Of a stretch of DNA of 12,358 nucleotides, positions 1 through 12,358 are shown piece after piece. Source of the stretch: Pseudomonadota bacterium (GTDB lineage Bacteria > Pseudomonadota > Alphaproteobacteria > Rickettsiales > UBA1997). Each line of letters opens with the position of its first letter. Position 1 is the stretch's first letter. Location of the stretch: NCBI GenBank assembly GCA_009921385.1, contig RFXY01000014.1:1-12358 (forward strand). Direction: 5' to 3'. The position numbers were made by a program, and so were the translations under genes. The notes beneath the pieces are model-generated. The model saw only the letters and a list, made by a program, of their open reading frames with translations, searched no databases and was not told the DNA's origin.

Positions 1-3000
1 ACTTAATTGAATCTGCATTAAATTGTAATCTAGTAAGATTGTTTGTGCTGTTATAATCAAGCATAAAAGACTGAGACCAATTTCTCCACCAAGCAAAATT
101 AGATGTTCTGTATAATTGCTGATTTATTTTTTGCACTATAAATAAACTCGATTGGTTTATATCATCTACAGAACCGCTAGCTAGAGTGTCGATTCTGATA
201 TTCGGATCGTTGTTTAAATAACCAAGAAAATAACCATCATCTGCACCACCATTAAAATTAATAGCAGAGCTGTTATTGATGCCACTATTTACATAGGTTA
301 AAGTGCCAACTGGTCGAAATTCAAAAGGAGTGGCATTTTCTTTTAGATCGTTCCAAACTGGAACCGATTCGTTATTGTTTAAAATTCTGCCAAAAGAAGC
401 GATGGTGTTGTCTTTGGTTTCGAGCCATAAACTTATTTTGCTAGAATCTGGTACTGGCGGTAAACATCCTTTGAGTTGAAAGTTGGCATTGCAAGTATAG
501 CTAGGGGTGCCAACATAACCTTCGCTACACACGATATTGGCAGAAGTGGGAACGGTGGTTTTGTTGGTTGCTGTTGCCAACAGGGCAGAAGAATTGCTCC
601 CGCTAAATTTATAGGCTCCAAAGCCAATAATTTTGCCACCAGGAGTGGCAGAAGAGGCTGTGCAACTGGTAATTTGAGTGCAACTGCCACCTGTAATTGA
701 GCCAGTTCCGCCATTACTTGGGCAGTTGACTGTGAGAGTTGAGCCGTTGGCGGTGTAGCCAGAAGTGCAATAAGCGGTGGTGTTGTGAGTAAGATTTGTT
801 CCGCTTGCACTATTGGCAACATTAGCAACATTAGCAACTTGGCAAACATTTGCTTGGCAAGGGTTGTTAAAAGTTTTGTTGCCAGTATTACAAGAAACAG
901 TAGGCGAGCCGTTGTAACCATTTTTACAAGTTAACACACCAGAATTATTGCCACTTAATATGCTTAACGAATTAACCAAACTAATATTGTTGCTACTTGC
1001 TTCTGCGGGAGTAAGAACACAATTATCTGGGTTGCAAGAGCCAACAATGGTTGCTTGCCCGCCGTAGTTTTGGCAATTAACCTGCACCGAACTGCTATAG
1101 CCACTAGCATCGCAAGTGATGTAGTCGTTATGAGCAAAACCTTGGCTACTACTGGTGGCAGAAATGCCTGCGGTAGCTGGAATGGTGGAACAAACCATTG
1201 GCAAATTCCATTTTTTGGCAAGATAGGTTTGTGTAGATATTCTATCGGCATCGCTAAGTGCGGTTTTGTAGACTAAAATTTCGCCAATTTTGCCAGTGAA
1301 ATTGTTGAGAAAACTGCCTAATCTATCAACATCGGCAGAACCAACCAAGATTTGCCCAGTGCGTGTGATAGGAGAAGTAAAAGAATTGTTGTTATTGTTG
1401 GTTAAAACTTGTAGACTATTTTGATAGCCAACCGAGGTGCTAGTATTTTTAACCAAGCTAATTAAAACAGGGTTGTTATTGCCTATAGATGCCGATTGTG
1501 CACGATAATTAGTTGCATCGGTTTTAGAAAAATCAAACAATATTTTATTGTTATCATAAACTGAAGATAACATTCTTTCGCCACCGCCAAGGGAAATACA
1601 GCTATTTAATGTAGTATCGCTAAGAGAGGAGTTGTAATAATAAATATTGCCAACATAGCCTCGATAATAATCGTAGTTCCAGTAATCATTGGAACCGCAA
1701 CTAATAGCATAAGGAAAATAAAAATCATAACCAGCATTGTCTAGTCTGGTTTTTGTTTTAATGTTTCCTCCATAAATATCGGTAATTTTTAAATAAGGTA
1801 TTTTATTAGTATAACGAATGGTAATTATCATTCCATCTACATAATTTGCTTGTTCGGCAGTTGTAAGAACAATACTAAGAGGTGCTGGCATATAGCCTCC
1901 TGCATGCTGAACTATCTCTACTGCATTTGTGCCAACATTTACACCTACTCCTGCATAACTACCATATGTAGATCCCCATTCTGGGTAAATTAGATATTTA
2001 GCACCATCTGCACAACAAGCTCCTGTTCCGTTAGCAGATTCTCTATCTAGATGGGTTGTTGTGGTGCTGGTAGGTTTAGCATAAATTATTACTGTAAAGT
2101 TATTTTTATAAACTGTGTAATTTGCTGAGGTTTGTAAGCAAGAATTGCCTGCATCAAATAATAATGCAGGAGAAGATCCGAAAATATTATTGGCATATTT
2201 TGGAGGTGTATTTCTTTGGTTTAATGTTTTTGTGTTTGCTGAGTTTGTCCAGCTAGTAAAGTTGGCACCGTTGATGCCTGTTGCAGGCACAATAAACTGT
2301 TCTGTTGGTGAGCATGCTCCAGTTTGGCTTACTGTAGAAGAAGAATGACCATTGTAGAATGCATAATTACCTTCGCTACTCCACCCAAAACTGTTGGTGT
2401 TTTTGGTGGAGTCGGCTTGTTGCACAATAAAGATGGTTGCTTGATCGTTGCCGGCAATATCGGAGCGAGAAATATTAAAATTATTGTTGCTAGCATAAAA
2501 ACCAAGCAACGAATTATCGCCGTTAAAAGCAACTGCCGAACCATTATTAATGCCGTTAGTTTGGTTTTTAAATAAAATATCGCCGCCGGTTTTGCATTGA
2601 TTATTACACAAAGTGCCATTTGCTAAAGTAATATAAGAAACATTGCTAGTGCAGGCGGTGCCAAAAGTGCAAGGATAAGAATTGTTGGGATAAATTGGTT
2701 GAAAAGTAAATTTTGCTCCTGTTGGTTTGAGATCGTTCCACTTGGTGATGGTTGCATTGTTGGTAACATTTTCGATTTCGAAAGAGCCATAGGTGTTATC
2801 TTTGGCTTCGAGCCATAAAGTTAAATTAGCGGTAATTGGCGGAGTGCAACCTTGCATTTTCAAGCCATCGGCATTGCAAGTGTAGGTGATGTCGGAGGCA
2901 GTTTTTACATAACCAGAAGCGGTATCGCAAATAATATCGTTTATAGGTGTTTGGTTTGGTGTATAAGAAAAAGAGGTTGATCTAGAAAAGTTGGCAGTTT

Positions 3001-6000
3001 TTTGATAGGCTTTCCAGCCATTTATTTTGTTGTTAGCATCAAAATCAATAGAGCATGCAACCGCTTGACAACTACCTCCTATTAAAGAGCCAGCTCCGCC
3101 ATTACTAGAGCATTGAGCAGTTAAAGTGTAAAAGCCAGAGTTTAAAATTGGTTTATAACCATTGATGCAATAAACAGTGTTGGAGTGTGTTACTTGCGAA
3201 TTACTTGCAGAATTGGTGGCACTGGCAACATTAGTGATATTGCAAGTATTTGCCTGACAAGAATTGGTTATGGTTTCGGTTTCTGCTAAACAACTTATAG
3301 TTGGCGATCCGTAATAAAAAGGAAGACAACTACCGTTGGTGCCGTTAATGGTTATAGAAGAATTGGTGTTGATGCCAAGTGGAGAATTAATAATAATATT
3401 ATTTGCTAAGGCTTCAAGTTCAGTAAAAACACAATTATTAGGAGTGCAGGCGCCAATTGTGGTGGTGCCGTTATTTGGGCTACAAATAAAATTGCCGTCG
3501 CTATTGCAAATGCTTTGAGTTGTAGTGAATGTTGCTGGTTTAGAATAGCCAAAAGAACAAGTTAAATTTGGATTATTTAAAATGCTTGTGCAAGATGTTG
3601 CGGTTTGAGAAGTTATAGTTTGATTGCCGTTGGTTAAATTTACGGTGCAATTGTTGGTAGAACAACCAGCATAATTACTGTCGTTACAAACAACTGTCGA
3701 GCCGCCAGAACTGTTGTATCCTGTGTTGCAACTAATGTTTTGATTGTGTCTATAAGTTCCGCTTACTAAATCTGGTCTAGTTGGCACAGTGCAATCTCGA
3801 TAACAAGTTGGCACAACTCCATCGGTGTTTAATCCGCAAACTACAGAAGTGCCATTAGAACCATTGCTATAGCCAGTAGCACATTGCACTGCGGTGTTAT
3901 GATTATAGGTGCCAAAAATAATATCAGTTCTGCTTTGGCTAGGCACAGTGCAGTTAAGATAGCATTTGCCATTTCCAGAAACATTGCTTAAAGAATTATA
4001 GTTGCCACCATATTGAGTGCAGTTTGCATTCATGGCAAAACCAGAAGTTGCGGTTCTGGTGCTGGCATTTCCCATGGTAAAACCACTTTGGCAAAGCATA
4101 GCTTCATTATGCAAATAAATATTTTTGGTAGTTTTTACACCGATAGTATCGCTTGCATTAGAGATGCTACACACTTTGGTAAAACCCCATTTTGTTGCTA
4201 AATAATCTTGCACATTTATGCGATCGACATCGGATAATACTGTTTTATAAACTATGATTTCACCAATTTTGCCAGTAAAACCATCGGCGATTTTTAAAAA
4301 ACCAGTGGACGATGTGAGATTATTTGCTGTAGTTGCATCTAGAACTGTAAAACTATTGTTATTGCTATTTTCTCTGTTATCTTGGTAAACTTTAACAATG
4401 TTGTTATTGATAGAAATCGTAATAATTTTTGGGGTAGTGTTGGCAGTGTTTTCGCTTGAAACATAAGTTGTGCTACCAAGAGTTACTTGAGTTTTGTTGC
4501 CAGCGGTATAGTTTTCGAGTTTAAATAAATTATTGGTATTGGTATTATCTTGCCATAAAAAGCTACTACCACCACTGTTTTGAGATTGTTGCACTATAAA
4601 AACAGTTGCTTGATTACTTGAAGTGTTGATTAAATTGCTTAACACAGCATTGCTAGAAGTTAGGGTAGAATTGCCAGAAAAACTAATTGCCGAGTTAGAA
4701 TTTATGCCATTTGCACCAGTAACATAAGTGGTATTACCACCGCTAAAATTAAATTTTGTGGCAGTGGTTTCTTTGATATCGTTCCATAAAGTAATTGCAG
4801 AAGACGGATTATTTTCACCGAAAGAAGAAATGGTATTATCTTTGGCATCTAGCCATAAAGATATATTGCTTGTGCTTGGTGGTGTGCAACCGCTTAAAGT
4901 TATTGTGTTGTTAATGCATTTGTATTGTGGGCTTCCAGTATAGCCAGCACTGCATACAATAGAATAATTAGAAGGAATGTTAGTTGCGGTTGCTGTATAA
5001 GATAGATATGCTTTTTTACTGCTTCTATTAATAATATTATCGCCAAATTTATAAGCCCCCCAGCCAATAATTTTACCATTTGCATCGCTAGTAATCGAGC
5101 AAAATTGCCATTTTGTGGCTAAATAATTGTGAACTGTAGCTACTTCGTTATCGCTAAGAGATTTATTATAAATCATTAATTCTGCAACTTCGCCAGCATA
5201 TTTTTCGTTATTATCAAATTTTCTGCCGACAACAAAATAACCATTACCAGTACTCAACTTATTTAAGTTGCCACTTTCAATTTTACTGTCAGTATTATTA
5301 AAAATATTGACATAACTTGCACTATTGATTTTATTTATACTCATGCTAGAAATGTTGCCAAGATTATTGTTGGAACTAATGCAACCCTTTGCTATATCAT
5401 TACAATTATAATAGGCATTTTCTCCAGAAAAATAAGCAAAATTACTCACAAATAACATACCAGCTCTCTTAAAATTTTGTAAAGAGTTAGAATTTTGTTC
5501 AAATAAAGTCATGGTACTAGAAGAATTTATTTTATGTACTGCAATCATAGTGTAACTATCTGAACCATTAGTAATTGGCATCATATTTTGTGTTGTAGTA
5601 AACAAAGAATCGTTGCCATCAAAACTAATAACCGGCATATTGTTATAATTAGCAGAGGTTGGTTTGTAGGTTGGTTTGTTGGCATCGGTGCCTTGAGTAA
5701 CTTCGGTTGCAGTTCCGCCAGCACTATTTATTTTACTTATCCAGGTGCCAATTTTTTCGTTTGGTGCCGTTCCTGATTTCATAATAGAGCTGGCATCGTT
5801 AGCATCTAGCCATAAAGTGAGTGAAGAAGCTATGCCAATACTATAAAATTCGTTTGGCACACAATTTCCGCCAAAAACCCTACCAAGTAAAATATTATTA
5901 CAGTCGGCAGTAATTGGAGCTGTTTGAGTAAAGCCAGTTTTGCAAGTAATCGGATCGCCATGAGTAAAGGTTGTTAAAGTTCCACTTCCGCCAACAATGT

Positions 6001-9000
6001 TTGGATTTAAAACATTGCATCTATTGATGGTGCAAGTGCCAACAGTGAGTGTTGAGCCACTAGATGTGCAATCTAATTTACTGTTAACAATTGCAGAAGA
6101 AAAACTATCAACCAATGGTTTGCTATAACCATAAGGGCATTTTGCTCCACCAGTGTTTGTTGTTGCACCAAGAGTTGCAGTTGAGGCATTGGCAAGAATA
6201 GTGCTATAATAGGTGTCATGATCATATAGAGTGGTGCTTACTAGAGCAGATCCGCCTACTGAATTATCTTTATTAAAAGTTACATAGCATTTGTTGATAC
6301 TGCAACTGCCACTAACCGTTGCTTCGCCACCATAAAGCAAACAACTAGCAGAAATAGAGCCATTGTAGCCTCGATCGCAAGAAAGAACAGTTCCGTCAGC
6401 AATGCTTTGGTTCGAAAATTTTGTGGTATCTCTTGTTACATAACCAGTGTTACCATTAATTTTAATGCAAATTTTTGGAGAGAATCCCCATTTAGTTGCC
6501 AAGTAATCTTGCACATTAACTCTTTCGGTATTGTTTAATGATCTTTTATAAATAATAATCTCGCCTAATTTGCCAACAAAATCGTTGGCAATAGTAAGAG
6601 TGCCAGAGGTGGAAGAAATGCTAGAAGCGGTGTTATTGTTGATGATTGTCAAAGCATTTTGATAAGCAATCGTGCCACTACTAGATTTTACTATCGATAT
6701 TAAAGTTGGGCTTGTGCTATAAGATTGATTTGATGATTTATAGCTTGCAGTAGGAGAAAAATCGAATTTAAATTTGCCGTTATCAGCAGAATCGGTAGAT
6801 ATTTGCATTAATTTATTAGCACCATCTTGCCACAACAAGCTTGAATTTCTGCTGGCATTTTCTGATTTTTGCACAATAAAAATGGTAGAGTCGGTGTTGT
6901 TGCTAATAATTTTCGCCTTATCAACGGTGGCAGAAAAGTTTTGACCGCTTAAATTAAGAGCGGATTTGCCATTTATAGCACTAAGGCTTTGCAAAGCAGA
7001 GCTTGAAGCGGTAAAATTAATTTTATTAGCACTTAAATCTTTCCATGTAGTAATATTACTTAAATTACTACCAAACGAATTATAAGTGTTGTCTTTAGCT
7101 TCAAGCCACAAACCAATATCAGCATAGTTAGGCGGTCCGCAACCTTCTATGGTCAGATTATTGCGATTCGGGCAAGAATAGCTAATATTGACACCACTAT
7201 TCACATAACCACTAGCAGTATTACAAGATAAAGGACCAGTAACAGTTTGACCAAAATCAAAATAAATATTATTGCCACTGGTTGCAATAGAAGAAGTAAA
7301 GCTAGAGGCGGGTATTACCGTCCAGCTTGATTTATCACTACTTACTACAAATTGAATATTCGCATCACCTTTATTTTCATACCACCAAATATCAATAGGA
7401 ACAATATCTCCGCTATTAAGATTTATTCCAGCATCATGATAGTTTAATTTTCTACCATAAATAGCCCAATCATTAATAATTTCTTGATTATTGATTTTAA
7501 CTACAACACCATCATCAGAATATGTGCCAAAATAATGAATCCCTGTTCTGCTGGCTCTATAATATCCAGTAAAATTAATTATAACATCATCAACTTTGCC
7601 AGTATCTAAAACAGCAGAATCTCCCCAGTCATAATCTATGTTTCCAATAAATCCAGTTGTTAACAAAATTAGATTATCTCTAGTTGGTTGACTACTATTC
7701 CAAGGGTCTTTGGTATAAGTTGTGTATTTTATAGCATTAGCTCCACCACTATAAACATAAGCACCGAAATTGTTAATAATATTACTAGCGATATTCTGAG
7801 TGGCTTCACAAGTTATGCGAGCACAACCTGCAAAAACAGCGGGTGCATTATGTGTGGTGCAAGTATATGTTGCTGTTCCGTCATATCCAGAGGCACAATT
7901 TAAGCCAGTTATTGCTTTTGCTATATCGGTATAATCAAAATTAGTTAAGCCAGTTACTGTATAGCCAGTGGTGTTTGGATTTGTGCAGGTTATTCTGGTG
8001 CAACTGCCACCAGTGATTGTTCCGGTAATGGCGGTGGCATAATCGTTATTTGGGCAGTTGGCAGTGAGAGTTCCTGCACTAGATACATAACCTTTAAGGC
8101 AATAAATTTGTTGAGTGTGACTTACTTTTGAAGGTGCTAAAGCACCAGCGGTGCCACTTGTTAAAGGAACCAAGCATTCATTGGTGGCACAAGAGCCGTT
8201 AATGGTGATTGCGTTATTGTTTGTATCGCATAAATAATTAAGTGGGGCGAGATTATCGTTATAGCCATAAGCACAAGATAACAAACCTTTTTGAGCTGGC
8301 TTTTTATATTCAACCAAAGTGGGATTGGCTTGTGAAGAATCTTTAATTAAACTGCTGTTGTATAAAATAGTAGCAAGATCTGTTCTGCTTAATACTTTAC
8401 ACATTTTACCCAAACAGGTTTTGCTAGTGGGATCAAAATATTTAGCATCGTTGATAGTTCTGTCGATATTAGAAACCGCACATCCGCAATTAAATGTGGT
8501 GGTTTGATATTTATTTGAATCGCCTTGACAACTATTTTGATAGATGTCGCCATTATAATATCCATTAACACCATCTATAATGCCATCTAATATACTGCAA
8601 TTTACTGAGCAATTATTATTCTTTAGAGCGTTGCAAAAATTTTTCCCTTCCTCTCTTAAACCTTTTGTATTTTTAAGGCAGGCTTTTTGGCATTCTTTGC
8701 TTATTGTAAAATCTGAACCACCAGAAAAACATTTAATCACAGTATCTAAAGATGCATTAAAAGTATCGTTGGTTAAATCAGAAACATATTGTTTTAAACC
8801 GTCTGCTTGACATTGGTAAGAAGTTATATTTAACGATTCACCGTTAGAAATTGTTTTGTAAATGCCAGTTCTGCTACTGTGTGTTTTGCCTTCATAAAGT
8901 TGATTTTCTGGAATATTACATAATTCAGAAGTGCTTTCTGCAACAGTGGTTGTGTCGCTAAATTGATTGGTGTTACTAAAATCGCTAAAAGAAGCGGTTG

Positions 9001-9523
9001 TTTTATCGCCAGTGTCAAAAATTTTATAATTGGCAAAGCCATCTGGTGCAAAATCGCTAGTGCCTAATACAGGAATTAAATAACCATAAAAATTGCCGTA
9101 GCGATTAATAGCATCTTCTTTGGCAATACCTAAAGTTACATAAGGTATTTCGCCGTAATAATAGTAATAATCAATATTGTTTATTTTTATAATTTTTGGT
9201 GTTAGTCCAGCACAACCTTCAGCTTGTCTTGCCACTTCCTCTCCGTTTCCGCCAGTAGCAGGGCAGGGCAGAACCGTATATCTACAATCACCCTCTTTAC
9301 ATCCTGCACTATTTTTTAGTTTGAGTGCTTCGATTTTATTTTTAATGTTTTGTATTCTTTTATAATCTACTTTTGTTTGTTTATAGAGGTTTTCAAAGCT
9401 ATTTACAGCCAAAAAACTAATAGCAACAAGGGCAAAAATAATCAATAAAATCGAGGCATCAAGCAAGCTAAAGCCTTTTTTAGTTGATTTATTGAAATGT
9501 TTTGCTAGTTGCTTGTTTAACAT
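1..9523 (-). CDS. Giant modular type IV prepilin-like surface protein (3' end beyond window)
   Basis: I read every triplet of this minus-strand frame and found no stop across 3,174 codons; the C-terminus lies off the left edge. The ATG at 9523-9521 is fixed by an in-frame TAA at 9529-9527. Residues 1-17 are a basic leader ending KKG, followed by FSLLDASILLIIFALVAISF, a class III prepilin signal and helix. Then come a pseudopilin-like segment (about 84-155), Cys-rich sequence (to about 572), PA14 (about 600-738), LamG1 (799-1014), Cys block (1019-1221), LamG2 (1228-1474), Cys block (1475-1546), LamG3 (1550-1781), long Cys block (1785-2226), LamG4 with a nested domain (2230-2774), Cys block (2778-3020) and incomplete LamG5 (3024 on). 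The protein is rich in Asn, Ser, Thr and Gly. Ordinary pilins are about 150 residues. The paired cysteines imply an oxidising, exported location. Adhesion or glycan binding is inferred from the domain types only. No pilus assembly gene is nearby. Confidence 0.9.
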   Translation of the reverse strand, partial: MLNKQLAKHFNKSTKKGFSLLDASILLIIFALVAISFLAVNSFENLYKQTKVDYKRIQNIKNKIEALKLKNSAGCKEGDCRYTVLPCPATGGNGEEVARQAEGCAGLTPKIIKINNIDYYYYYGEIPYVTLGIAKEDAINRYGNFYGYLIPVLGTSDFAPDGFANYKIFDTGDKTTASFSDFSNTNQFSDTTTVAESTSELCNIPENQLYEGKTHSSRTGIYKTISNGESLNITSYQCQADGLKQYVSDLTNDTFNASLDTVIKCFSGGSDFTISKECQKACLKNTKGLREEGKNFCNALKNNNCSVNCSILDGIIDGVNGYYNGDIYQNSCQGDSNKYQTTTFNCGCAVSNIDRTINDAKYFDPTSKTCLGKMCKVLSRTDLATILYNSSLIKDSSQANPTLVEYKKPAQKGLLSCAYGYNDNLAPLNYLCDTNNNAITINGSCATNECLVPLTSGTAGALAPSKVSHTQQIYCLKGYVSSAGTLTANCPNNDYATAITGTITGGSCTRITCTNPNTTGYTVTGLTNFDYTDIAKAITGLNCASGYDGTATYTCTTHNAPAVFAGCARITCEATQNIASNIINNFGAYVYSGGANAIKYTTYTKDPWNSSQPTRDNLILLTTGFIGNIDYDWGDSAVLDTGKVDDVIINFTGYYRASRTGIHYFGTYSDDGVVVKINNQEIINDWAIYGRKLNYHDAGINLNSGDIVPIDIWWYENKGDANIQFVVSSDKSSWTVIPASSFTSSIATSGNNIYFDFGQTVTGPLSCNTASGYVNSGVNISYSCPNRNNLTIEGCGPPNYADIGLWLEAKDNTYNSFGSNLSNITTWKDLSANKINFTASSSALQSLSAINGKSALNLSGQNFSATVDKAKIISNNTDSTIFIVQKSENASRNSSLLWQDGANKLMQISTDSADNGKFKFDFSPTASYKSSNQSYSTSPTLISIVKSSSGTIAYQNALTIINNNTASSISSTSGTLTIANDFVGKLGEIIIYKRSLNNTERVNVQDYLATKWGFSPKICIKINGNTGYVTRDTTKFSNQSIADGTVLSCDRGYNGSISASCLLYGGEATVSGSCSINKCYVTFNKDNSVGGSALVSTTLYDHDTYYSTILANASTATLGATTNTGGAKCPYGYSKPLVDSFSSAIVNSKLDCTSSGSTLTVGTCTINRCNVLNPNIVGGSGTLTTFTHGDPITCKTGFTQTAPITADCNNILLGRVFGGNCVPNEFYSIGIASSLTLWLDANDASSIMKSGTAPNEKIGTWISKINSAGGTATEVTQGTDANKPTYKPTSANYNNMPVISFDGNDSLFTTTQNMMPITNGSDSYTMIAVHKINSSSTMTLFEQNSNSLQNFKRAGMLFVSNFAYFSGENAYYNCNDIAKGCISSNNNLGNISSMSINKINSASYVNIFNNTDSKIESGNLNKLSTGNGYFVVGRKFDNNEKYAGEVAELMIYNKSLSDNEVATVHNYLATKWQFCSITSDANGKIIGWGAYKFGDNIINRSSKKAYLSYTATATNIPSNYSIVCSAGYTGSPQYKCINNTITLSGCTPPSTSNISLWLDAKDNTISSFGENNPSSAITLWNDIKETTATKFNFSGGNTTYVTGANGINSNSAISFSGNSTLTSSNAVLSNLINTSSNQATVFIVQQSQNSGGSSFLWQDNTNTNNLFKLENYTAGNKTQVTLGSTTYVSSENTANTTPKIITISINNNIVKVYQDNRENSNNNSFTVLDATTANNLTSSTGFLKIADGFTGKIGEIIVYKTVLSDVDRINVQDYLATKWGFTKVCSISNASDTIGVKTTKNIYLHNEAMLCQSGFTMGNASTRTATSGFAMNANCTQYGGNYNSLSNVSGNGKCYLNCTVPSQSRTDIIFGTYNHNTAVQCATGYSNGSNGTSVVCGLNTDGVVPTCYRDCTVPTRPDLVSGTYRHNQNISCNTGYNSSGGSTVVCNDSNYAGCSTNNCTVNLTNGNQTITSQTATSCTSILNNPNLTCSFGYSKPATFTTTQSICNSDGNFICSPNNGTTTIGACTPNNCVFTELEALANNIIINSPLGINTNSSITINGTNGSCLPFYYGSPTISCLAETETITNSCQANTCNITNVASATNSASNSQVTHSNTVYCINGYKPILNSGFYTLTAQCSSNGGAGSLIGGSCQAVACSIDFDANNKINGWKAYQKTANFSRSTSFSYTPNQTPINDIICDTASGYVKTASDITYTCNADGLKMQGCTPPITANLTLWLEAKDNTYGSFEIENVTNNATITKWNDLKPTGAKFTFQPIYPNNSYPCTFGTACTSNVSYITLANGTLCNNQCKTGGDILFKNQTNGINNGSAVAFNGDNSLLGFYASNNNFNISRSDIAGNDQATIFIVQQADSTKNTNSFGWSSEGNYAFYNGHSSSTVSQTGACSPTEQFIVPATGINGANFTSWTNSANTKTLNQRNTPPKYANNIFGSSPALLFDAGNSCLQTSANYTVYKNNFTVIIYAKPTSTTTTHLDRESANGTGACCADGAKYLIYPEWGSTYGSYAGVGVNVGTNAVEIVQHAGGYMPAPLSIVLTTAEQANYVDGMIITIRYTNKIPYLKITDIYGGNIKTKTRLDNAGYDFYFPYAISCGSNDYWNYDYYRGYVGNIYYYNSSLSDTTLNSCISLGGGERMLSSVYDNNKILFDFSKTDATNYRAQSASIGNNNPVLISLVKNTSTSVGYQNSLQVLTNNNNNSFTSPITRTGQILVGSADVDRLGSFLNNFTGKIGEILVYKTALSDADRISTQTYLAKKWNLPMVCSTIPATAGISATSSSQGFAHNDYITCDASGYSSSVQVNCQNYGGQATIVGSCNPDNCVLTPAEASSNNISLVNSLSILSGNNSGVLTCKNGYNGSPTVSCNTGNKTFNNPCQANVCQVANVANVANSASGTNLTHNTTAYCTSGYTANGSTLTVNCPSNGGTGSITGGSCTQITSCTASSATPGGKIIGFGAYKFSGSNSSALLATATNKTTVPTSANIVCSEGYVGTPSYTCNANFQLKGCLPPVPDSSKISLWLETKDNTIASFGRILNNNESVPVWNDLKENATPFEFRPVGTLTYVNSGINNSSAINFNGGADDGYFLGYLNNDPNIRIDTLASGSVDDINQSSLFIVQKINQQLYRTSNFAWWRNWSQSFMLDYNSTNNLTRLQFNADSIK
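2..454 (-). repeat. LamG/ConA-like jellyroll domain 5 (cut by the window edge)
   Basis: Residues 3024-3174, open at the edge. It has ISLWLETKDNTIASFGR, PVWNDLKENATPFEF, SAINFNGG and SSLFIVQKINQQLYRTSNFAWW. This is the first two thirds of the same domain as copies 1, 3 and 4. The gene therefore continues at least through the end of this domain. Confidence 0.85.
464..1192 (-). other. Cysteine-rich block E
   Basis: Residues 2778-3020, between LamG4 and LamG5. It carries NCVLTPAEA, CKNGYNGSPTVSC, PCQANVC, ANSAS...LTHNTTAYC, GSITGGSC and GKIIGFGAYKFS...GCLPP. The order copies block D (residues 2031-2226). Confidence 0.55.
823..849 (-). repeat. Short 9-nt tandem repeat encoding VAN repeats
   Basis: The plus strand reads ggcaac attagcaac attagcaac ttggcaaac, a 9-nt unit repeated with slight drift. 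On the coding strand it gives VANVANVAN in block E. The matching place in block D reads TNVASATN, so the expansion is local and probably arose by replication slippage. Confidence 0.6.
1202..2836 (-). repeat. LamG/ConA-like domain 4, interrupted by a nested domain
   Basis: Residues 2230-2774, about 545 residues against about 215-245 for the other copies. The first part has LTLWLEAKDNTYGSF and ATIFIVQQADSTKNTNSFGW. The last part has ILFDFSKT, PVLISLVKNTSTSVGYQNSL, then GKIGEILVYKTALSDADRIS and TYLAKKWNL. The two parts together match LamG1 and LamG3 end to end, so the extra length is an insertion. Confidence 0.82.
1595..2320 (-). other. Jellyroll-like domain inserted inside LamG4
   Basis: Residues about 2402-2643. 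It lies where LamG1 passes directly from its SLLW strand to its KFDF strand. It contains PALLFDAGNSCLQT, NNFTVIIYAKPTS, and a closing YVGNIYYYNSSLSD that mimics the closing LamG strand without KWG. Cys2404 and Cys2642 sit at its two ends and could form a bond that pins the insertion. A ConA-like fold is likely but not shown. Confidence 0.65.
2846..4171 (-). other. Long cysteine-rich block D
   Basis: Residues 1785-2226, the longest inter-LamG block. The N-terminal half carries a tandem pair of sushi-like repeats (listed separately). The C-terminal half (2031-2226) carries NCVFTELEA, SCQANTC, TNSAS...VTHSNTVYC, GSLIGGSC and the KINGWKAYQ...GCTPP linker. That half is a diverged duplicate of residues 2835-3020. 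Confidence 0.55.
3650..3952 (-). repeat. Tandem pair of sushi/CCP-like repeats
   Basis: Two adjacent units, residues 1858-1910 and 1911-1958. Both follow C-TVP...G-T-Y-(N/R)-H-N...C-x-TGY...G-x-S/T-VVC...C. This resembles the four-cysteine sushi pattern, with a Tyr-x-His element before Cys2 and Gly-Tyr after it. The units are clear repeats of each other; the assignment to the sushi fold is an inference. Confidence 0.6.
4181..4876 (-). repeat. LamG/ConA-like jellyroll domain 3
   Basis: Residues 1550-1781. It opens with ISLWLDAKDNTISSFGE, has ATVFIVQQSQNSGGSSFLW in the middle and closes with GKIGEIIVYKTVLSDVDRIN and VQDYLATKWGF. It is close to LamG1 and to the split LamG4, so these three probably share a common duplicated ancestor. 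Confidence 0.88.
4886..5101 (-). other. Cysteine-rich linker C
   Basis: Residues 1475-1546, a short form of the pre-LamG linker. It has GKIIGWGAYKFG, then CSAGYTGSPQYKC and ends GCTPP. Related linkers precede LamG4 (KINGWKAYQK...GCTPP) and LamG5 (GKIIGFGAYKFS...GCLPP); the one before LamG1 ends GCGPP. Confidence 0.6.
5102..5842 (-). repeat. LamG/ConA-like jellyroll domain 2
   Basis: Residues 1228-1474. It opens with LTLWLDANDASS, has a mid-domain VISFDGNDSLF strand and closes with GEVAELMIYNKSLSDNEVAT and NYLATKWQF. This copy is the most diverged: it lacks the FIVQ(K/Q) strand of the others and matches the generic bacterial LamG-like consensus (P-V-I-x-F-D-G-x-D) best. Confidence 0.87.
5861..6469 (-). 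other. Cysteine-rich block B
   Basis: Residues 1019-1221, joining LamG1 to LamG2. Recurrent elements include CDRGYNGSISASC, CPYGYSKP and CKTGFTQTAPITADC, each a C-x-x-G-(Y/F)...C half-module like those in the other blocks. CPYGYSKP has a close partner, CSFGYSKP, in block D. Confidence 0.55.
6482..7129 (-). repeat. LamG/ConA-like jellyroll domain 1
   Basis: Residues 799-1014. It follows a CGPP linker (795-798), opens with IGLWLEAKDNTYNSF and ends with GKLGEIIIYKRSLNN and NVQDYLATKWGF. The opening 'LWL(D/E)A' strand and the closing 'G-x-I-(A/G)-E-(I/V)-(I/L)-(V/I)-Y-(N/K)-x-x-L-(S/N)-x-x-E-R...YLA-x-KWG' strand are typical of bacterial LamG-like jellyroll domains. The mid-domain FIVQKSEN strand also recurs in copies 3, 4 and 5. 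Confidence 0.88.
7310..7725 (-). other. PA14 domain
   Basis: Residues about 600-738. The diagnostic core is FTGYYRASRTGIHYFGTYSD, followed by DG (Asp670, Asp671, Gly672), VVVKINNQEIINDW (Trp686), then SGDIVPIDIWWYE. This matches the PA14 beta-barrel pattern: a G-x-Y element, an aromatic-rich strand, S/D-D-G, a short loop, W, and a late strand pair describing the object's 'weight'. PA14 domains are commonly carbohydrate-binding in adhesins and glycosidases. Ligand is unknown here. Confidence 0.85.
7808..8401 (-). other. Cysteine-rich block A, sushi/CCP-like modules
   Basis: Residues about 375-572, between the N-terminal region and PA14. It shows repeated C...C-x-x-GY...C...GGSC spacing, including CLKGYVSS...TLTANCPNN and TGTITGGSC. 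The same module recurs near residues 2090-2170 and 2890-2960. The Cys/Gly-Tyr spacing resembles sushi (CCP) domains, but this is a pattern resemblance only. Confidence 0.55.
9059..9274 (-). other. Pseudopilin-like segment after the helix
   Basis: Residues about 84-155. It contains LPCPA (85-89), then a G-x-IPY-x-TLGI-type stretch and DAINRYGNFYGYLIP. This order (CPA, then G-x-(I/V)P-x-x-TLG, then D-x-x-x-(R/W)-x-G with an aromatic Y) resembles the short ectodomain found after prepilin signals in many alphaproteobacterial pseudopilin-like proteins. The comparison is from memory, not an alignment. Confidence 0.5.
9395..9523 (-). other. Type IV prepilin signal peptide and N-terminal helix
   Basis: Residues 1-43 of the giant protein. 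A 17-residue leader with several Lys residues ends in KKG; predicted prepilin-peptidase cleavage is between Gly17 and Phe18. The mature end reads FSLLD, then about 18 hydrophobic residues, then a charged helical stretch to about residue 70. Canonical pilins have Glu at mature position +5; here it is Asp22. The motif supports processing by PilD/GspO-type peptidase and N-methylation of Phe, but no such peptidase is in the window. Confidence 0.85.
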
Positions 9524-9538
9524 TTTTAATTAACAAGC
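9511..9538 (-). promoter_or_regulatory. Possible mRNA hairpin presenting the start codon of the giant gene
   Basis: On the minus strand, GCTTGTTAA upstream can pair with TTAAACAAGC at codons 2-5 (nine base pairs with one bulged A). The loop contains the ATG. A perfect 12-bp palindrome, AACAAGCTTGTT, overlaps at 9532-9543. No Shine-Dalgarno sequence is present, so structure could affect initiation, or the palindrome could be an operator. Both readings are inference. Confidence 0.35.
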
Positions 9539-9585
9539 TTGTTTGGTTAGGTTGTTTTGCATAAGATTTAAAGACGGGAAATGAT

Positions 9586-9591
9586 ATTATA
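9586..9591 (-). promoter_or_regulatory. Candidate -10 box for the giant gene
   Basis: The minus strand reads TATAAT, a perfect -10 match, 63 nt upstream of the ATG. No good -35 hexamer lies 16-18 nt further upstream. In DNA this AT-rich such a match can occur by chance. Confidence 0.3.
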
Positions 9592-9664
9592 AACTTTCAA
9601 ATTCTAGAAAAGGAATTTTTGTTTTCAATCTCTTCTTGTTCTTTTGTTATAAAAAAATGCTGTA

Positions 9665-9693
9665 TTAATATAAATTGAAACAATAGATATTAT
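9665..9693 (+). promoter_or_regulatory. Candidate promoter for the purB operon
   Basis: TTAATA (9665-9670), 17 nt, then TATTAT (9688-9693). These match the sigma-70 consensus at 4 of 6 and 5 of 6 positions. Transcription would begin inside the left arm of the large inverted repeat. AT-rich context makes this weak. Confidence 0.3.
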
Positions 9694-9746
9694 ACCATTT
9701 CCATTAGTTAAAACCATAGTATTATTTTAATTAATGGAATTGGTAT
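9692..9746. repeat. Long inverted repeat in the divergent intergenic region
   Basis: Arms of 22 nt at 9692-9713 and 9725-9746 with an 11-nt loop. Only two positions fail to pair by Watson-Crick rules: one T-T mismatch (9698/9740) and one G-T wobble (9707/9731). There is no T-run directly after either arm, so it does not look like an intrinsic terminator. It could be an operator, a leader structure or a dispersed palindromic element. Confidence 0.7.
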
Positions 9747-9757
9747 TGCTATGCAAC

Positions 9758-9784
9758 TTCATCAAAAACATTGCTTTTGATGAA
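9758..9784. repeat. 10-bp perfect hairpin upstream of purB
   Basis: TTCATCAAAA (9758-9767) and TTTTGATGAA (9775-9784) pair perfectly around a 7-nt loop. It lies between the larger inverted repeat and the purB start, in the probable purB leader. It has no adjacent T-tract on either strand. Confidence 0.6.
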
Positions 9785-9797
9785 AAGTAATTTTAAA

Positions 9798-9833
9798 ATG
9801 ATGTTTTTAATTTTTTTATCTTTTAAGTTATGA
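9798..9833 (+). CDS. Possible 11-codon leader ORF overlapping the purB start
   Basis: ATG at 9798 opens a frame reading MMFLIFLSFKL and ends at TGA 9831-9833. The stop overlaps the purB ATG (9830-9832) in an ATGA arrangement, a classic set-up for translational coupling. PurB itself has no clear Shine-Dalgarno sequence. The peptide is hydrophobic and so short that chance is a fair alternative in this T-rich stretch. Confidence 0.3.
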   Translation: MMFLIFLSFKL

Positions 9834-11146
9834 TTCAGCGATATTCTTTGCCCGAAATGAGTTTTATTTGGCAGGCAGAAAACAAATATCAAATTTGGTT
9901 TGAAATCGAAATGCTTGCCACCGAGTGTTTAGAGCAACTCAACATTGCTCCAGCGGGCACCACCGGCAGGCTTCGCCAAAATTTTGCCAAAGCTGGTGGC
10001 AAATTTAATGTAGAAAGAATCGATGAAATCGAGCAAACCACCAAGCACGATGTTATTGCTTTTCTCACCCATTTGGCCGAACTTACTGGCGAAAATTCTA
10101 AATTCATTCACTATGGCATGACCAGCTCTGATGTGCTTGACACTGCTTTATCGATGCAACTAACACAATCTTGCGATTTGTTAATCACTAAATTAGAAAA
10201 ACTGTTAGAAGCTCTAAAAAAACAGGCTTTCTTACACAAAAATACTGTATGTGTTGGCAGATCGCACGGCATTCATGCCGAGCCAACCACTTTTGGCTTG
10301 AAAATGGCTAGGTTTTATGCCGAATTTAAGCGAAATTTACAACGTTTAAAAATGGCAAAACAAGAAATTGCTATTTGTGCCATTTCGGGGGCGGTGGGCA
10401 CTTTTGCCAACATTGCTCCACAAGTGCAAGATTTTGTAGCCAACAAGCTTGGCTTGATTTCTGAAACCATTTCTACTCAAGTAATTCCAAGAGATCGTCA
10501 TGCTTTTTTCTTTGCCACTTTGGCGGTTATTGCTTCTAGCATCGAAAATATTGCGGTTGAAATTAGGCATTTACAACGAACCGAAGTTTTAGAAGTCGAA
10601 GAATTTTTTAGCCCAGGGCAAAAAGGCAGTTCTGCTATGCCTCACAAAAGAAACCCGGTATTAAGCGAAAATCTCACTGGTTTGGCAAAAATGGTGCGAA
10701 GTGCTGTGGTTCCTGCCCTAGAAAATGTTGCTTTATGGCACGAAAGAGATATTTCTCATTCTGCGGTTGAGCGATTCATTGCCCCTGATTGTTGCATCAC
10801 TCTTGATTTTGCTTTGCACCGACTCACTTTATTGGTAGAAAATTTGTTGATTTACCCGCAAAATATGCAAAAAAATCTCGATAATTTGGGTGGCTTGGTT
10901 TATTCGCAACGAGTTTTGCTGGCTTTAATTGAAGAAGCCAACATTTCTCGAGAACAAGCCTATGCTTTGGTGCAAAAAAATGCTATGAAAATCTGGAGAA
11001 AAGAAGAATCTAGTTTTTTGTCTTTACTTGAAAAAGAACCAGAAATAATCAACAAATTAGGCAAAGAAAAGTTGCAATCATTGTTTGATATTGGCTATCA
11101 TCTAAAACATATCGATCATATTTTTCAACAAGTTTTTAATAATTAA
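9830..11146 (+). CDS. purB: Adenylosuccinate lyase
   Basis: PurB, 438 residues, cleaves SAICAR to AICAR and adenylosuccinate to AMP, each with release of fumarate, in cytosolic purine synthesis. It belongs to the fumarase/aspartase superfamily. Seen here: KHD (72-74), MTSSD (97-101), GRSHGIHAEP (143-152) with His146 as candidate acid, and the mobile signature loop GSSAMPHKRNP (266-276). By family alignment Ser268 is the likely catalytic base. The start MIQRYSLPEM matches the usual alphaproteobacterial N-terminus, and the whole chain (e.g. CAISGAVGTFANI, STQVIPRDRHA, HLQRTEVLEVEEFFSPGQKG) follows that clade. The length is normal and no key residue is missing. It is the first gene of a tight plus-strand cluster, with 3 nt to the next gene. 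Confidence 0.97.
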   Translation: MIQRYSLPEMSFIWQAENKYQIWFEIEMLATECLEQLNIAPAGTTGRLRQNFAKAGGKFNVERIDEIEQTTKHDVIAFLTHLAELTGENSKFIHYGMTSSDVLDTALSMQLTQSCDLLITKLEKLLEALKKQAFLHKNTVCVGRSHGIHAEPTTFGLKMARFYAEFKRNLQRLKMAKQEIAICAISGAVGTFANIAPQVQDFVANKLGLISETISTQVIPRDRHAFFFATLAVIASSIENIAVEIRHLQRTEVLEVEEFFSPGQKGSSAMPHKRNPVLSENLTGLAKMVRSAVVPALENVALWHERDISHSAVERFIAPDCCITLDFALHRLTLLVENLLIYPQNMQKNLDNLGGLVYSQRVLLALIEEANISREQAYALVQKNAMKIWRKEESSFLSLLEKEPEIINKLGKEKLQSLFDIGYHLKHIDHIFQQVFNN

Positions 11147-12292: not shown

Positions 12293-12358
12293 ATGGCAAA
12301 AATAATTTTTATGGGCACCGCCAGTTTTGGTTTGCCAACTTTGCAAAATATTTTGCAA
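12293..12358 (+). CDS. fmt: Methionyl-tRNA formyltransferase, N-terminal fragment
   Basis: Only 22 codons are inside the window. The N-terminus reads MAKIIFMGTASFGLPTLQNI, which fits the Fmt opening strand and loop (typically (I/V)xFMGTPxFAxPxL). Fmt formylates Met-tRNA(fMet) with 10-formyl-THF for translation initiation. The ATG lies 3 nt after the previous stop, so it is likely co-transcribed with purB. The usual Pro-Asp/Glu after GT is Ala-Ser here, a mild departure. Another formyltransferase of the same fold is possible; the call rests on very few residues. Confidence 0.72.
   Translation, partial: MAKIIFMGTASFGLPTLQNILQ

What the first reader, a model, noticed from the sequence alone, without database searches (positions are those of the whole stretch)
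1..9523. A prepilin of at least 3,174 residues carrying PA14, LamG and sushi-like modules
Seen directly: one open frame with a class III prepilin signal at residues 1-43 and more than 3,000 residues of repeated extracellular-type modules, still open at the edge. Known: most pilins are about 150 residues; modular minor pilins with an added adhesive domain (PilB with vWA, PilC with a ConA-like lectin in Streptococcus sanguinis) exist but are far smaller. Inference: this is a giant modular pilin-type adhesin or sugar-binding fibre, possibly presented at a pilus or pseudopilus tip.
Basis: partly seen in the sequence, partly recalled or inferred. Interest (0 to 1): 0.88.

Follow-up and report, generated by a model that had tools for sequence, protein, structure and literature searches.

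The report
Giant modular pilin-type adhesin in Rickettsiales
A bacterium of the Rickettsiales group carries a gene that looks like a pilus subunit about ten times larger than its ordinary relatives, built as a long chain of sugar-binding-like and complement-like modules, and other oversized subunits with different cargo occur in other genomes of the order.

Summary
Window 2-9523 (minus) is one stop-free frame of 3,174 residues, open at the edge. It starts with a class III prepilin signal (KKG|FSLLDASILL) and a head motif shared with ordinary 231-374-residue Rickettsiales prepilins, some encoded beside prepilin peptidase and secretin. It continues as about 19 four-cysteine sushi-like units, one PA14 domain and five LamG-like modules. 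One orthologue, with the same purB-cfa neighbours, lies in a Rickettsiales MAG (64% identity over residues 1-1000, dN/dS about 0.28), so the gene is real at least to residue ~1,026. Prepilin frames of 1,000 residues or more occur in at least nine of 343 genomes of the order, with unrelated cargo. Relatives encode a PilT/MshL-like type IVa machine. Best reading: a giant modular minor pilin, probably at the tip, presenting lectin-type modules for attachment. Modular pilins with LamG or PA14 are known (PMC8179133); the size, module number and recurrent Rickettsiales set appear new. Cleavage, assembly, tip location and ligand are inferred. The 3' end and the window's own genome were not available.

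The parts
2..9523 (-). giant prepilin gene, 3,174+ residues, open at the window edge
   Evidence: orthologue L001
9473..9523 (-). prepilin leader, residues 1-17, ending KKG
   Evidence: sequence
9311..9472 (-). pilin alpha-1 (residues 18-71), D instead of E at +5; 49 of 54 residues identical in the orthologue
   Evidence: low-confidence helix 20-71
8924..9310 (-). pilin head with LPCPA and YGEIPYVTLGI motifs (residues 72-200)
8408..8923 (-). Cys-rich linker, residues 201-372, 55% identical in the orthologue
7823..8401 (-). sushi-like units 1-3 (residues 375-567)
   Evidence: two of the three are in A5
7325..7639 (-). PA14/GLEYA domain (residues 629-733) set inside a four-Cys unit (572-795, unit 4)
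6476..7135 (-). LamG-like module 1 (residues 797-1016)
5861..6469 (-). sushi-like units 5-7
   Evidence: two of the three are in A5
5102..5842 (-). LamG-like module 2
4886..5101 (-). sushi-like unit 8 (WGAYKF type)
4172..4882 (-). LamG-like module 3, the one modelled
2846..4171 (-). sushi-like units 9-15
   Evidence: five of the seven are in A5
1199..2842 (-). LamG-like module 4 with a second domain nested in it
1616..2307 (-). nested module, 80.9% DNA identity over 701 columns to a module of G001:C28 that there stands between sushi-like units
464..1192 (-). sushi-like units 16-19
2..454 (-). LamG-like module 5, cut by the window edge
9830..11146 (+). purB, adenylosuccinate lyase, divergent neighbour
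   Evidence: TIGR00928, 496.5 bits
11150..12289 (+). cyclopropane-fatty-acid synthase-like methyltransferase

Best explanation
The gene encodes a giant modular minor pilin of a type IVa/MSHA-like pilus in a Rickettsiales bacterium. Inferred steps: membrane insertion by the alpha-1 helix; leader removal by the prepilin peptidase after KKG; incorporation through the LPCPA pilin head, most simply at the tip because so long a cargo would disturb packing in the shaft; passage of the string of small disulfide-rich modules through the secretin; and binding of surface glycans (protist host or prey, or biofilm matrix) by the PA14 and LamG modules, with the sushi-like units as spacers or secondary binding sites. 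PilT-type retraction would then pull the cell to its target. Shown by computation: the frame, its conservation to residue ~1,026, pilin-family membership of the head, PA14 and LamG-like folds, and the machinery in relatives. Not shown: cleavage, assembly, tip location, ligand.
For: Class III signal and head motif shared with a prepilin family. In G105 four such prepilins lie next to prepilin peptidase and secretin; in G136 three lie next to the peptidase. In 16 chosen genomes: prepilin peptidase 16 of 16, secretin 16 of 16, T2SSF platform 15 of 16, T2SSE-family ATPase 16 of 16, of which 14 have a full-length PilB-type frame. PilT/PilU above cut-off in G001; MshL the best secretin model; MshE-related c-di-GMP motif above cut-off in the G252 ATPase. 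Orthologue with the same synteny; pS 0.542, pN 0.224 (dS 0.96, dN 0.267). The PA14 domain and the stretch before it change most between orthologues (39% each, against 91% in alpha-1 and 79% in LamG1). The LamG module model hits PilC, the lectin pilin of S. sanguinis, at ranks 26 and 30. Non-Glu at +5 in 7 of 10 giants, Glu in 20 of 20 complete prepilins under 500 residues of the aligned set; a tip-capping subunit lacks Glu5 (PMC10191384, passages).
Against: Pfam N_methyl does not hit it. The N-terminal structure model is poor (pLDDT 33). The window's own genome is not held. G001, the nearest genome, gave no T2SSF match and no full-length PilB, though it is a fragmented 1.0-Mb MAG; G251 also lacks a full-length PilB frame. 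Asp at +5 keeps the charge, so the tip argument is weak for this very protein. The family profile also hits one non-pilin chain, a C-type lectin, at E 1.8e-5. Among 343 genomes only G001 holds a true orthologue (next best E 1e-14). Residues beyond ~1,026 have no independent assembly apart from the nested module.
Confidence: 0.62

Rival explanations
1. The pilin-like N-terminus serves only as a membrane anchor or secretion route: the protein is a cell-surface or released adhesin, not a filament subunit.
For: G252 carries similar modules on carriers without a pilin head: a 1,689-aa lipoprotein-like frame (by eye) and a 5,000-aa frame, so the modules do not need a pilus. N_methyl is not hit.
Against: The conserved G|F site, an alpha-1 at 91% identity and a head shared with prepilins next to pilD and secretin would be superfluous in a plain anchor.
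Confidence: 0.2
2. It is a tip pseudopilin of a type II-secretion-like system that pushes out other proteins.
For: Two prepilins of the G252 cluster hit GspG weakly and the G252 platform protein scores best with GspF, both below cut-off.
Against: A PilT-family retraction ATPase above its cut-off in G001 and MshL/MshE-like components point to a retractable pilus.
Confidence: 0.1
3. The great length is an assembly artefact: modules of several genes were joined by repeats.
For: Modules are repeated; the nested module sits elsewhere in G001:C28.
Against: No tandem arrays were found and the LamG-like modules are only 29-42% identical to the third one in protein. Open frame and low third-position GC persist throughout. 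The first 1,026 residues are collinear in an independent assembly.
Confidence: 0.08

Closest known systems
Modular type IV pilins PilB and PilC of Streptococcus sanguinis (PMC8179133, PMC9934059; passages seen)
   Same: Class III prepilin signal, small pilin part, adhesive cargo; the LamG-like module model matches the PilC lectin structures 7oa7 and 7oa8.
   Different: Processed PilC is 52.8 kDa with two extra modules; this protein exceeds 3,174 residues with about 25 modules, a different pilin head (LPCPA motif) and Asp at +5.
Modular pilins of the InterPro survey in PMC8179133 (passages seen)
   Same: PF13385 (LamG_3) and PA14 are among the cargo domains named there; S74 too, as in L095.
   Different: That survey keyed on the N_methyl signature, which this protein lacks in Pfam; its most extreme multi-domain case is an 860-residue protein.
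MSHA pilus of Vibrio
   Same: Relatives have a secretin scoring best with MshL and an ATPase with the MshE-related c-di-GMP motif.
   Different: MshL scores are below cut-off; I recall no giant modular prepilin there.
PilY1/PilC tip adhesin
   Same: Large multi-domain tip protein, by analogy.
   Different: PilY1 is not a pilin; it sits at the tip through minor pilins (PMC8179133, passages).

Membership tests
type IV prepilin | hydrophilic leader ending in G or A, then F and ~20 hydrophobic residues | tested here: met
   KKG|FSLLDASILLIIFALVAISFLAV; G17 and F18 invariant in four sequences
type IV prepilin | Glu at +5 (typical, absent in tip caps) | tested here: not met
   Asp in all four sequences; a typical, not a necessary, feature
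type IV prepilin | sequence homology to known pilins | tested here: met
   A3 profile (window is 1 of 30 rows) against PDB: Geopilin 1e-6, PilE 2e-5, TcpA and GspG 9e-5, but also a C-type lectin at 2e-5; N_methyl not hit by the single sequence
type IV prepilin | pilin fold: alpha-1 of about 50 residues plus beta-sheet head | tested here: inconclusive
   helix 20-71 predicted but pLDDT 33
type IV prepilin | processing and assembly into a filament | not testable with these tools
   needs experiment
modular pilin | pilin module fused to domains not specific to pilus biology | tested here: met
   PA14 above cut-off; LamG-like fold
PA14 domain | Pfam PF07691 above gathering score | tested here: met
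   32.3 bits against 24; orthologue 28.7
Laminin_G_3 / ConA-like | Pfam PF13385 above gathering score | tested here: not met
   18.1 bits against 27.6
Laminin_G_3 / ConA-like | ConA-like fold | tested here: met
   model of module 3, Foldseek best E 6e-8; one of five modules modelled
Sushi/CCP | profile match PF00084 | tested here: inconclusive
   2 of 14 units, best E 0.005; complement chains frequent among weak PDB hits, best E 0.05
type IVa/MSHA-like machine in the host | peptidase, extension ATPase, platform, secretin, retraction ATPase | tested here: inconclusive
   found in relatives, incompletely in G001; own genome not held

The most novel reading that the evidence does not exclude
Rickettsiales with pili use a constant LPCPA pilin head as a carrier on which giant, exchangeable chains of animal-like extracellular domains (sushi-like, LamG, PA14, FG-GAP, C1q, ALK/LTK Gly-rich) have been grafted several times independently. 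These tip chains are the recognition organ by which extracellular members of the order grip protist hosts or prey.
Probability: 0.33. Interest if true: 0.82.

Novelty: new variant of a known kind. Interest (0 to 1): 0.62.

Why it matters
How extracellular Rickettsiales attach to hosts is an open question; pili have been proposed (PMC10847448, passages), but the word pilin does not occur in that paper's main text. A recurrent set of giant prepilins with lectin-type cargo gives named genes and modules to test. At 3,174+ residues this one is more than three times the 860-residue case named as most extreme in PMC8179133, which raises the question of how such chains pass a secretin.

Tried and rejected
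Led nowhere: viral-contig scans with P0003 and P0001 gave no relative. A protein search with residues 1-520, limited to proteins of similar total length, gave no hit. The full-length protein search gave two hits, which I read as LamG modules only. The NCBIfam scan of P0001 was empty. The N-terminal structure model was too poor for a fold search, so none was run. PHROGs hit only one virion protein family, best at the second LamG-like module; I rejected a phage origin because of the purB/cfa setting and the orthologue. The promoter scan of 9400-9950 was at chance level. I rejected chance or frame artefact and tandem-repeat expansion. Paper searches showed no description of this class in the rows that they listed (titles and starts of abstracts only): 3 rows; 15 of 65,798; 15 of 1,380; 1; 2; 2; 10 of 11; none. 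This is no proof of absence from print.

Full report
Observation. The minus-strand frame 2-9523 is open for 3,174 codons and leaves the window. By base composition about 214 stops are expected; the other two frames of the strand hold 167 and 359. Third-position GC is 0.24 to 0.34 along the gene. No tandem DNA repeats were found. The neighbours, on the other strand and divergent, are purB and a CMAS-type methyltransferase.

Reality of the gene. A scan of genome contigs with the N-terminal alignment found one locus, L001, in a record titled Rickettsiales bacterium isolate CE-Jul18-19. It has the same neighbours, a truncated methyltransferase and purB, and an open frame of 1,021 residues that runs off its contig. 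Identity is 64% over residues 1-1000. Over 1,008 aligned codons pS is 0.542 and pN 0.224 (dS 0.96, dN 0.267), so the frame is under purifying selection; purB is identical at 381 of 438 residues. That the window is from the Rickettsiales is inferred from this kinship. Two further N-terminal fragments exist, P0006 (97%) and P0007 (70%). Of 343 genomes of the order only G001, which is that MAG, gives an orthologue-level match (E 1e-116; next best 1e-14). In it a second contig, G001:C28, starts inside a 725-residue frame of the same module types and ends with a stop after a sushi-like unit; it is probably, not certainly, the 3' end of that orthologue.

The N-terminus. The signal is MLNKQLAKHFNKSTKKG|FSLLDASILLIIFALVAISFLAV. 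Four sequences share G17, F18 and D22. The head carries LPCPA and YGEIPYVTLGI, motifs shared with prepilins found (72 of 343 genomes match). One search aligned 38 rows: the window and 37 others; four rows of one G001 gene (L001, L002, L004, L044) were left out as copies. A 30-row profile of the family hits 22 PDB sequences at E up to 1, nearly all type IV pilins or pseudopilins by name, the best at 1e-6; one is a C-type lectin at 1.8e-5. The profile finds 160 of 343 genomes of the order and 144 of 385 drawn from the class, which include some order members. In G105 four such prepilins lie beside divergent peptidase and secretin genes; in G136 three lie beside the peptidase. Against this, Pfam N_methyl does not hit the protein, and the AlphaFold model of residues 1-375 from four sequences has mean pLDDT 33; its helix 20-71 has the length of a pilin alpha-1, but that proves little.

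The cargo. By cysteine spacing I read 19 four-cysteine units (positions); 14 of the 19 were aligned and share all four cysteines, as they were cut to. C-x(2-4)-G[YF] occurs 18 times against a shuffled mean of 2.3. Pfam Sushi matches 2 of 14, best E 0.005; the profile's PDB hits are weak, the best being adhesion G-protein coupled receptor F1 at E 0.03, but complement-control chains are frequent among them. Five modules start with LWL[ED]..D. The third, modelled with five paralogous or orthologous rows, reached pLDDT 74 and pTM 0.79 and matches ConA-like domains of lectins, sialidases, arabinanases and neurotoxin-complex proteins; the PilC lectin pilin of S. sanguinis came at ranks 26 and 30. 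The PA14 domain matches RsgI3 at E 7e-9; Epa1 appears only at E 0.4. It keeps an SDDG stretch where PA14 lectins bind calcium (recall), which the orthologue lacks. Between orthologues the PA14 domain and the 57 residues before it change most (39% identity each), against 91% in alpha-1, 87% in unit 3 and 79% in LamG1.

Module movement. A module of about 230 residues is nested in the fourth LamG-like module. It is 80.9% identical in DNA over 701 columns to a module in G001:C28, where it stands between sushi-like units. That is near the divergence of purB (83.7% DNA identity), so the module is old and its position has changed, or different copies of a pair are seen in the two genomes.

A set of giants. 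Prepilin frames of 1,000 residues or more appear in nine of the 343 genomes: G001, G117 (2,445), G248, G251 (1,530), G267, G270 (1,633), G312 (1,665) and G342 among printed rows, and G247 (1,423); these lengths are the tool's stop-to-stop frames, and G001, G247 and G248 are cut by contig ends. Among printed rows of the class sample only G001 reaches 1,000; the largest other is 859. Both lists were cut and only the best 10 or 8 candidates of a genome were scored, so nine is a lower bound and the contrast is not a test. Pfam cargo: G117 has 21 FG-GAP stretches; G270 and G267 ALK/LTK glycine-rich domains; G312 two C1q stretches and S74; G251 one PKD match below cut-off and G247 none; G248 none, G001 GLEYA and PA14; G342 only N_methyl. 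G251, G247 and G248 lie beside a gene I read by eye as recR and hold 16, 20 and 10 C-x-G[YF] motifs, so a second lineage carries sushi-like chains. On a FastTree of the heads, printed without support values, giants fall at several separate places.

Residue +5. In one search Glu is present in 20 of 20 complete prepilins under 500 residues, 5 of 7 of 500 to 999, and 2 of 6 of 1,000 or more; of five cut rows under 500, four have Glu and one (L007) Thr. With four giants outside that alignment, read (G001, G247, G251 Asp; G342 Glu), 3 of 10 giants have Glu. These are few lineages, so the count is only suggestive.

Machinery. In 16 genomes chosen for head matches, not at random: peptidase 16 of 16, T2SSE family 16 of 16, but a full-length PilB-type frame in 14, not in G001 or G251, T2SSF 15 of 16, not G001, secretin 16 of 16. 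The T2SSE family also covers PilT and VirB11 types. The 343-residue ATPase of G001 is PilT/PilU family above cut-off; its secretin scores best, below cut-off, with MshL; the G252 ATPase scores best with PilB below cut-off and carries an MshE-related c-di-GMP motif above cut-off; the G001 peptidase hit no NCBIfam model. So a retractable type IVa/MSHA-like pilus is the likely machine.

Comparison with print. PMC8179133 (passages) reports more than 1,200 modular pilins of 264 architectures, with PF13385 and PA14 among the cargo, and names as most extreme an 860-residue protein with 12 copies of one motif. PMC9934059 (passages) gives processed PilC as 52.8 kDa. PMC10191384 (passages) states that the tip complex is capped by a subunit without Glu5. 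PMC10847448 and PMC9352585 (passages) report pili in several Rickettsiales lineages; [quoted passage not shown] So the principle is known. What appears new is the size, the number of modules, the LPCPA carrier and its repetition in the order.

Verdict. A giant modular minor pilin is the best reading (0.62). Unshown: cleavage, filament incorporation, tip position, ligand, full length.

Noticed in passing
L081 8319-10154; L090 5991-7826; L128 2739-3728: Tandem prepilins of 303 and 307 residues in G001 and G252 with LamG-like C-termini (in G001 one is above and one below the Pfam cut-off); a 330-residue G001 prepilin, for which Pfam shows no LamG, lies beside a TPS-domain (FhaB-like) frame.
   Followed up: partly
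L085 2349-17348: A 5,000-residue open frame in G252 with 180 cysteines and no Pfam match; one stretch matches window cargo at E 2.7e-6.
   Followed up: partly
L087 1-5067: A 1,689-residue frame in G252, lipoprotein-like by eye, matching window cargo modules at E down to 1.6e-16: the same cargo on another carrier.
   Followed up: partly
L095 5708-10690: Prepilin with two C1q stretches and an S74 intramolecular chaperone near the C-terminus, hinting at a trimeric or self-cleaving tip.
   Followed up: no
L093 2567-7429; L097 6778-10161: Prepilins with Met at +5 and ALK/LTK-type glycine-rich domains, named after animal receptors.
   Followed up: no
L094 7959-15290: 2,444-residue prepilin with 21 FG-GAP repeat stretches, next to another prepilin-like frame.
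   Followed up: no
L129 5232-7046: PilB/GspE-type ATPase with an MshE-related c-di-GMP-binding motif in a Rickettsiales genome.
   Followed up: partly
L084 1376-3328; L088 1-2118: A second prepilin of 651-706 residues with Asp at +5, shared by G001 and G252, followed by an unknown 423-509-residue frame.
   Followed up: no
window 12293-12358: Start of a third plus-strand frame reading MAKIIFMGTASFG, probably methionyl-tRNA formyltransferase (by eye).
   Followed up: no
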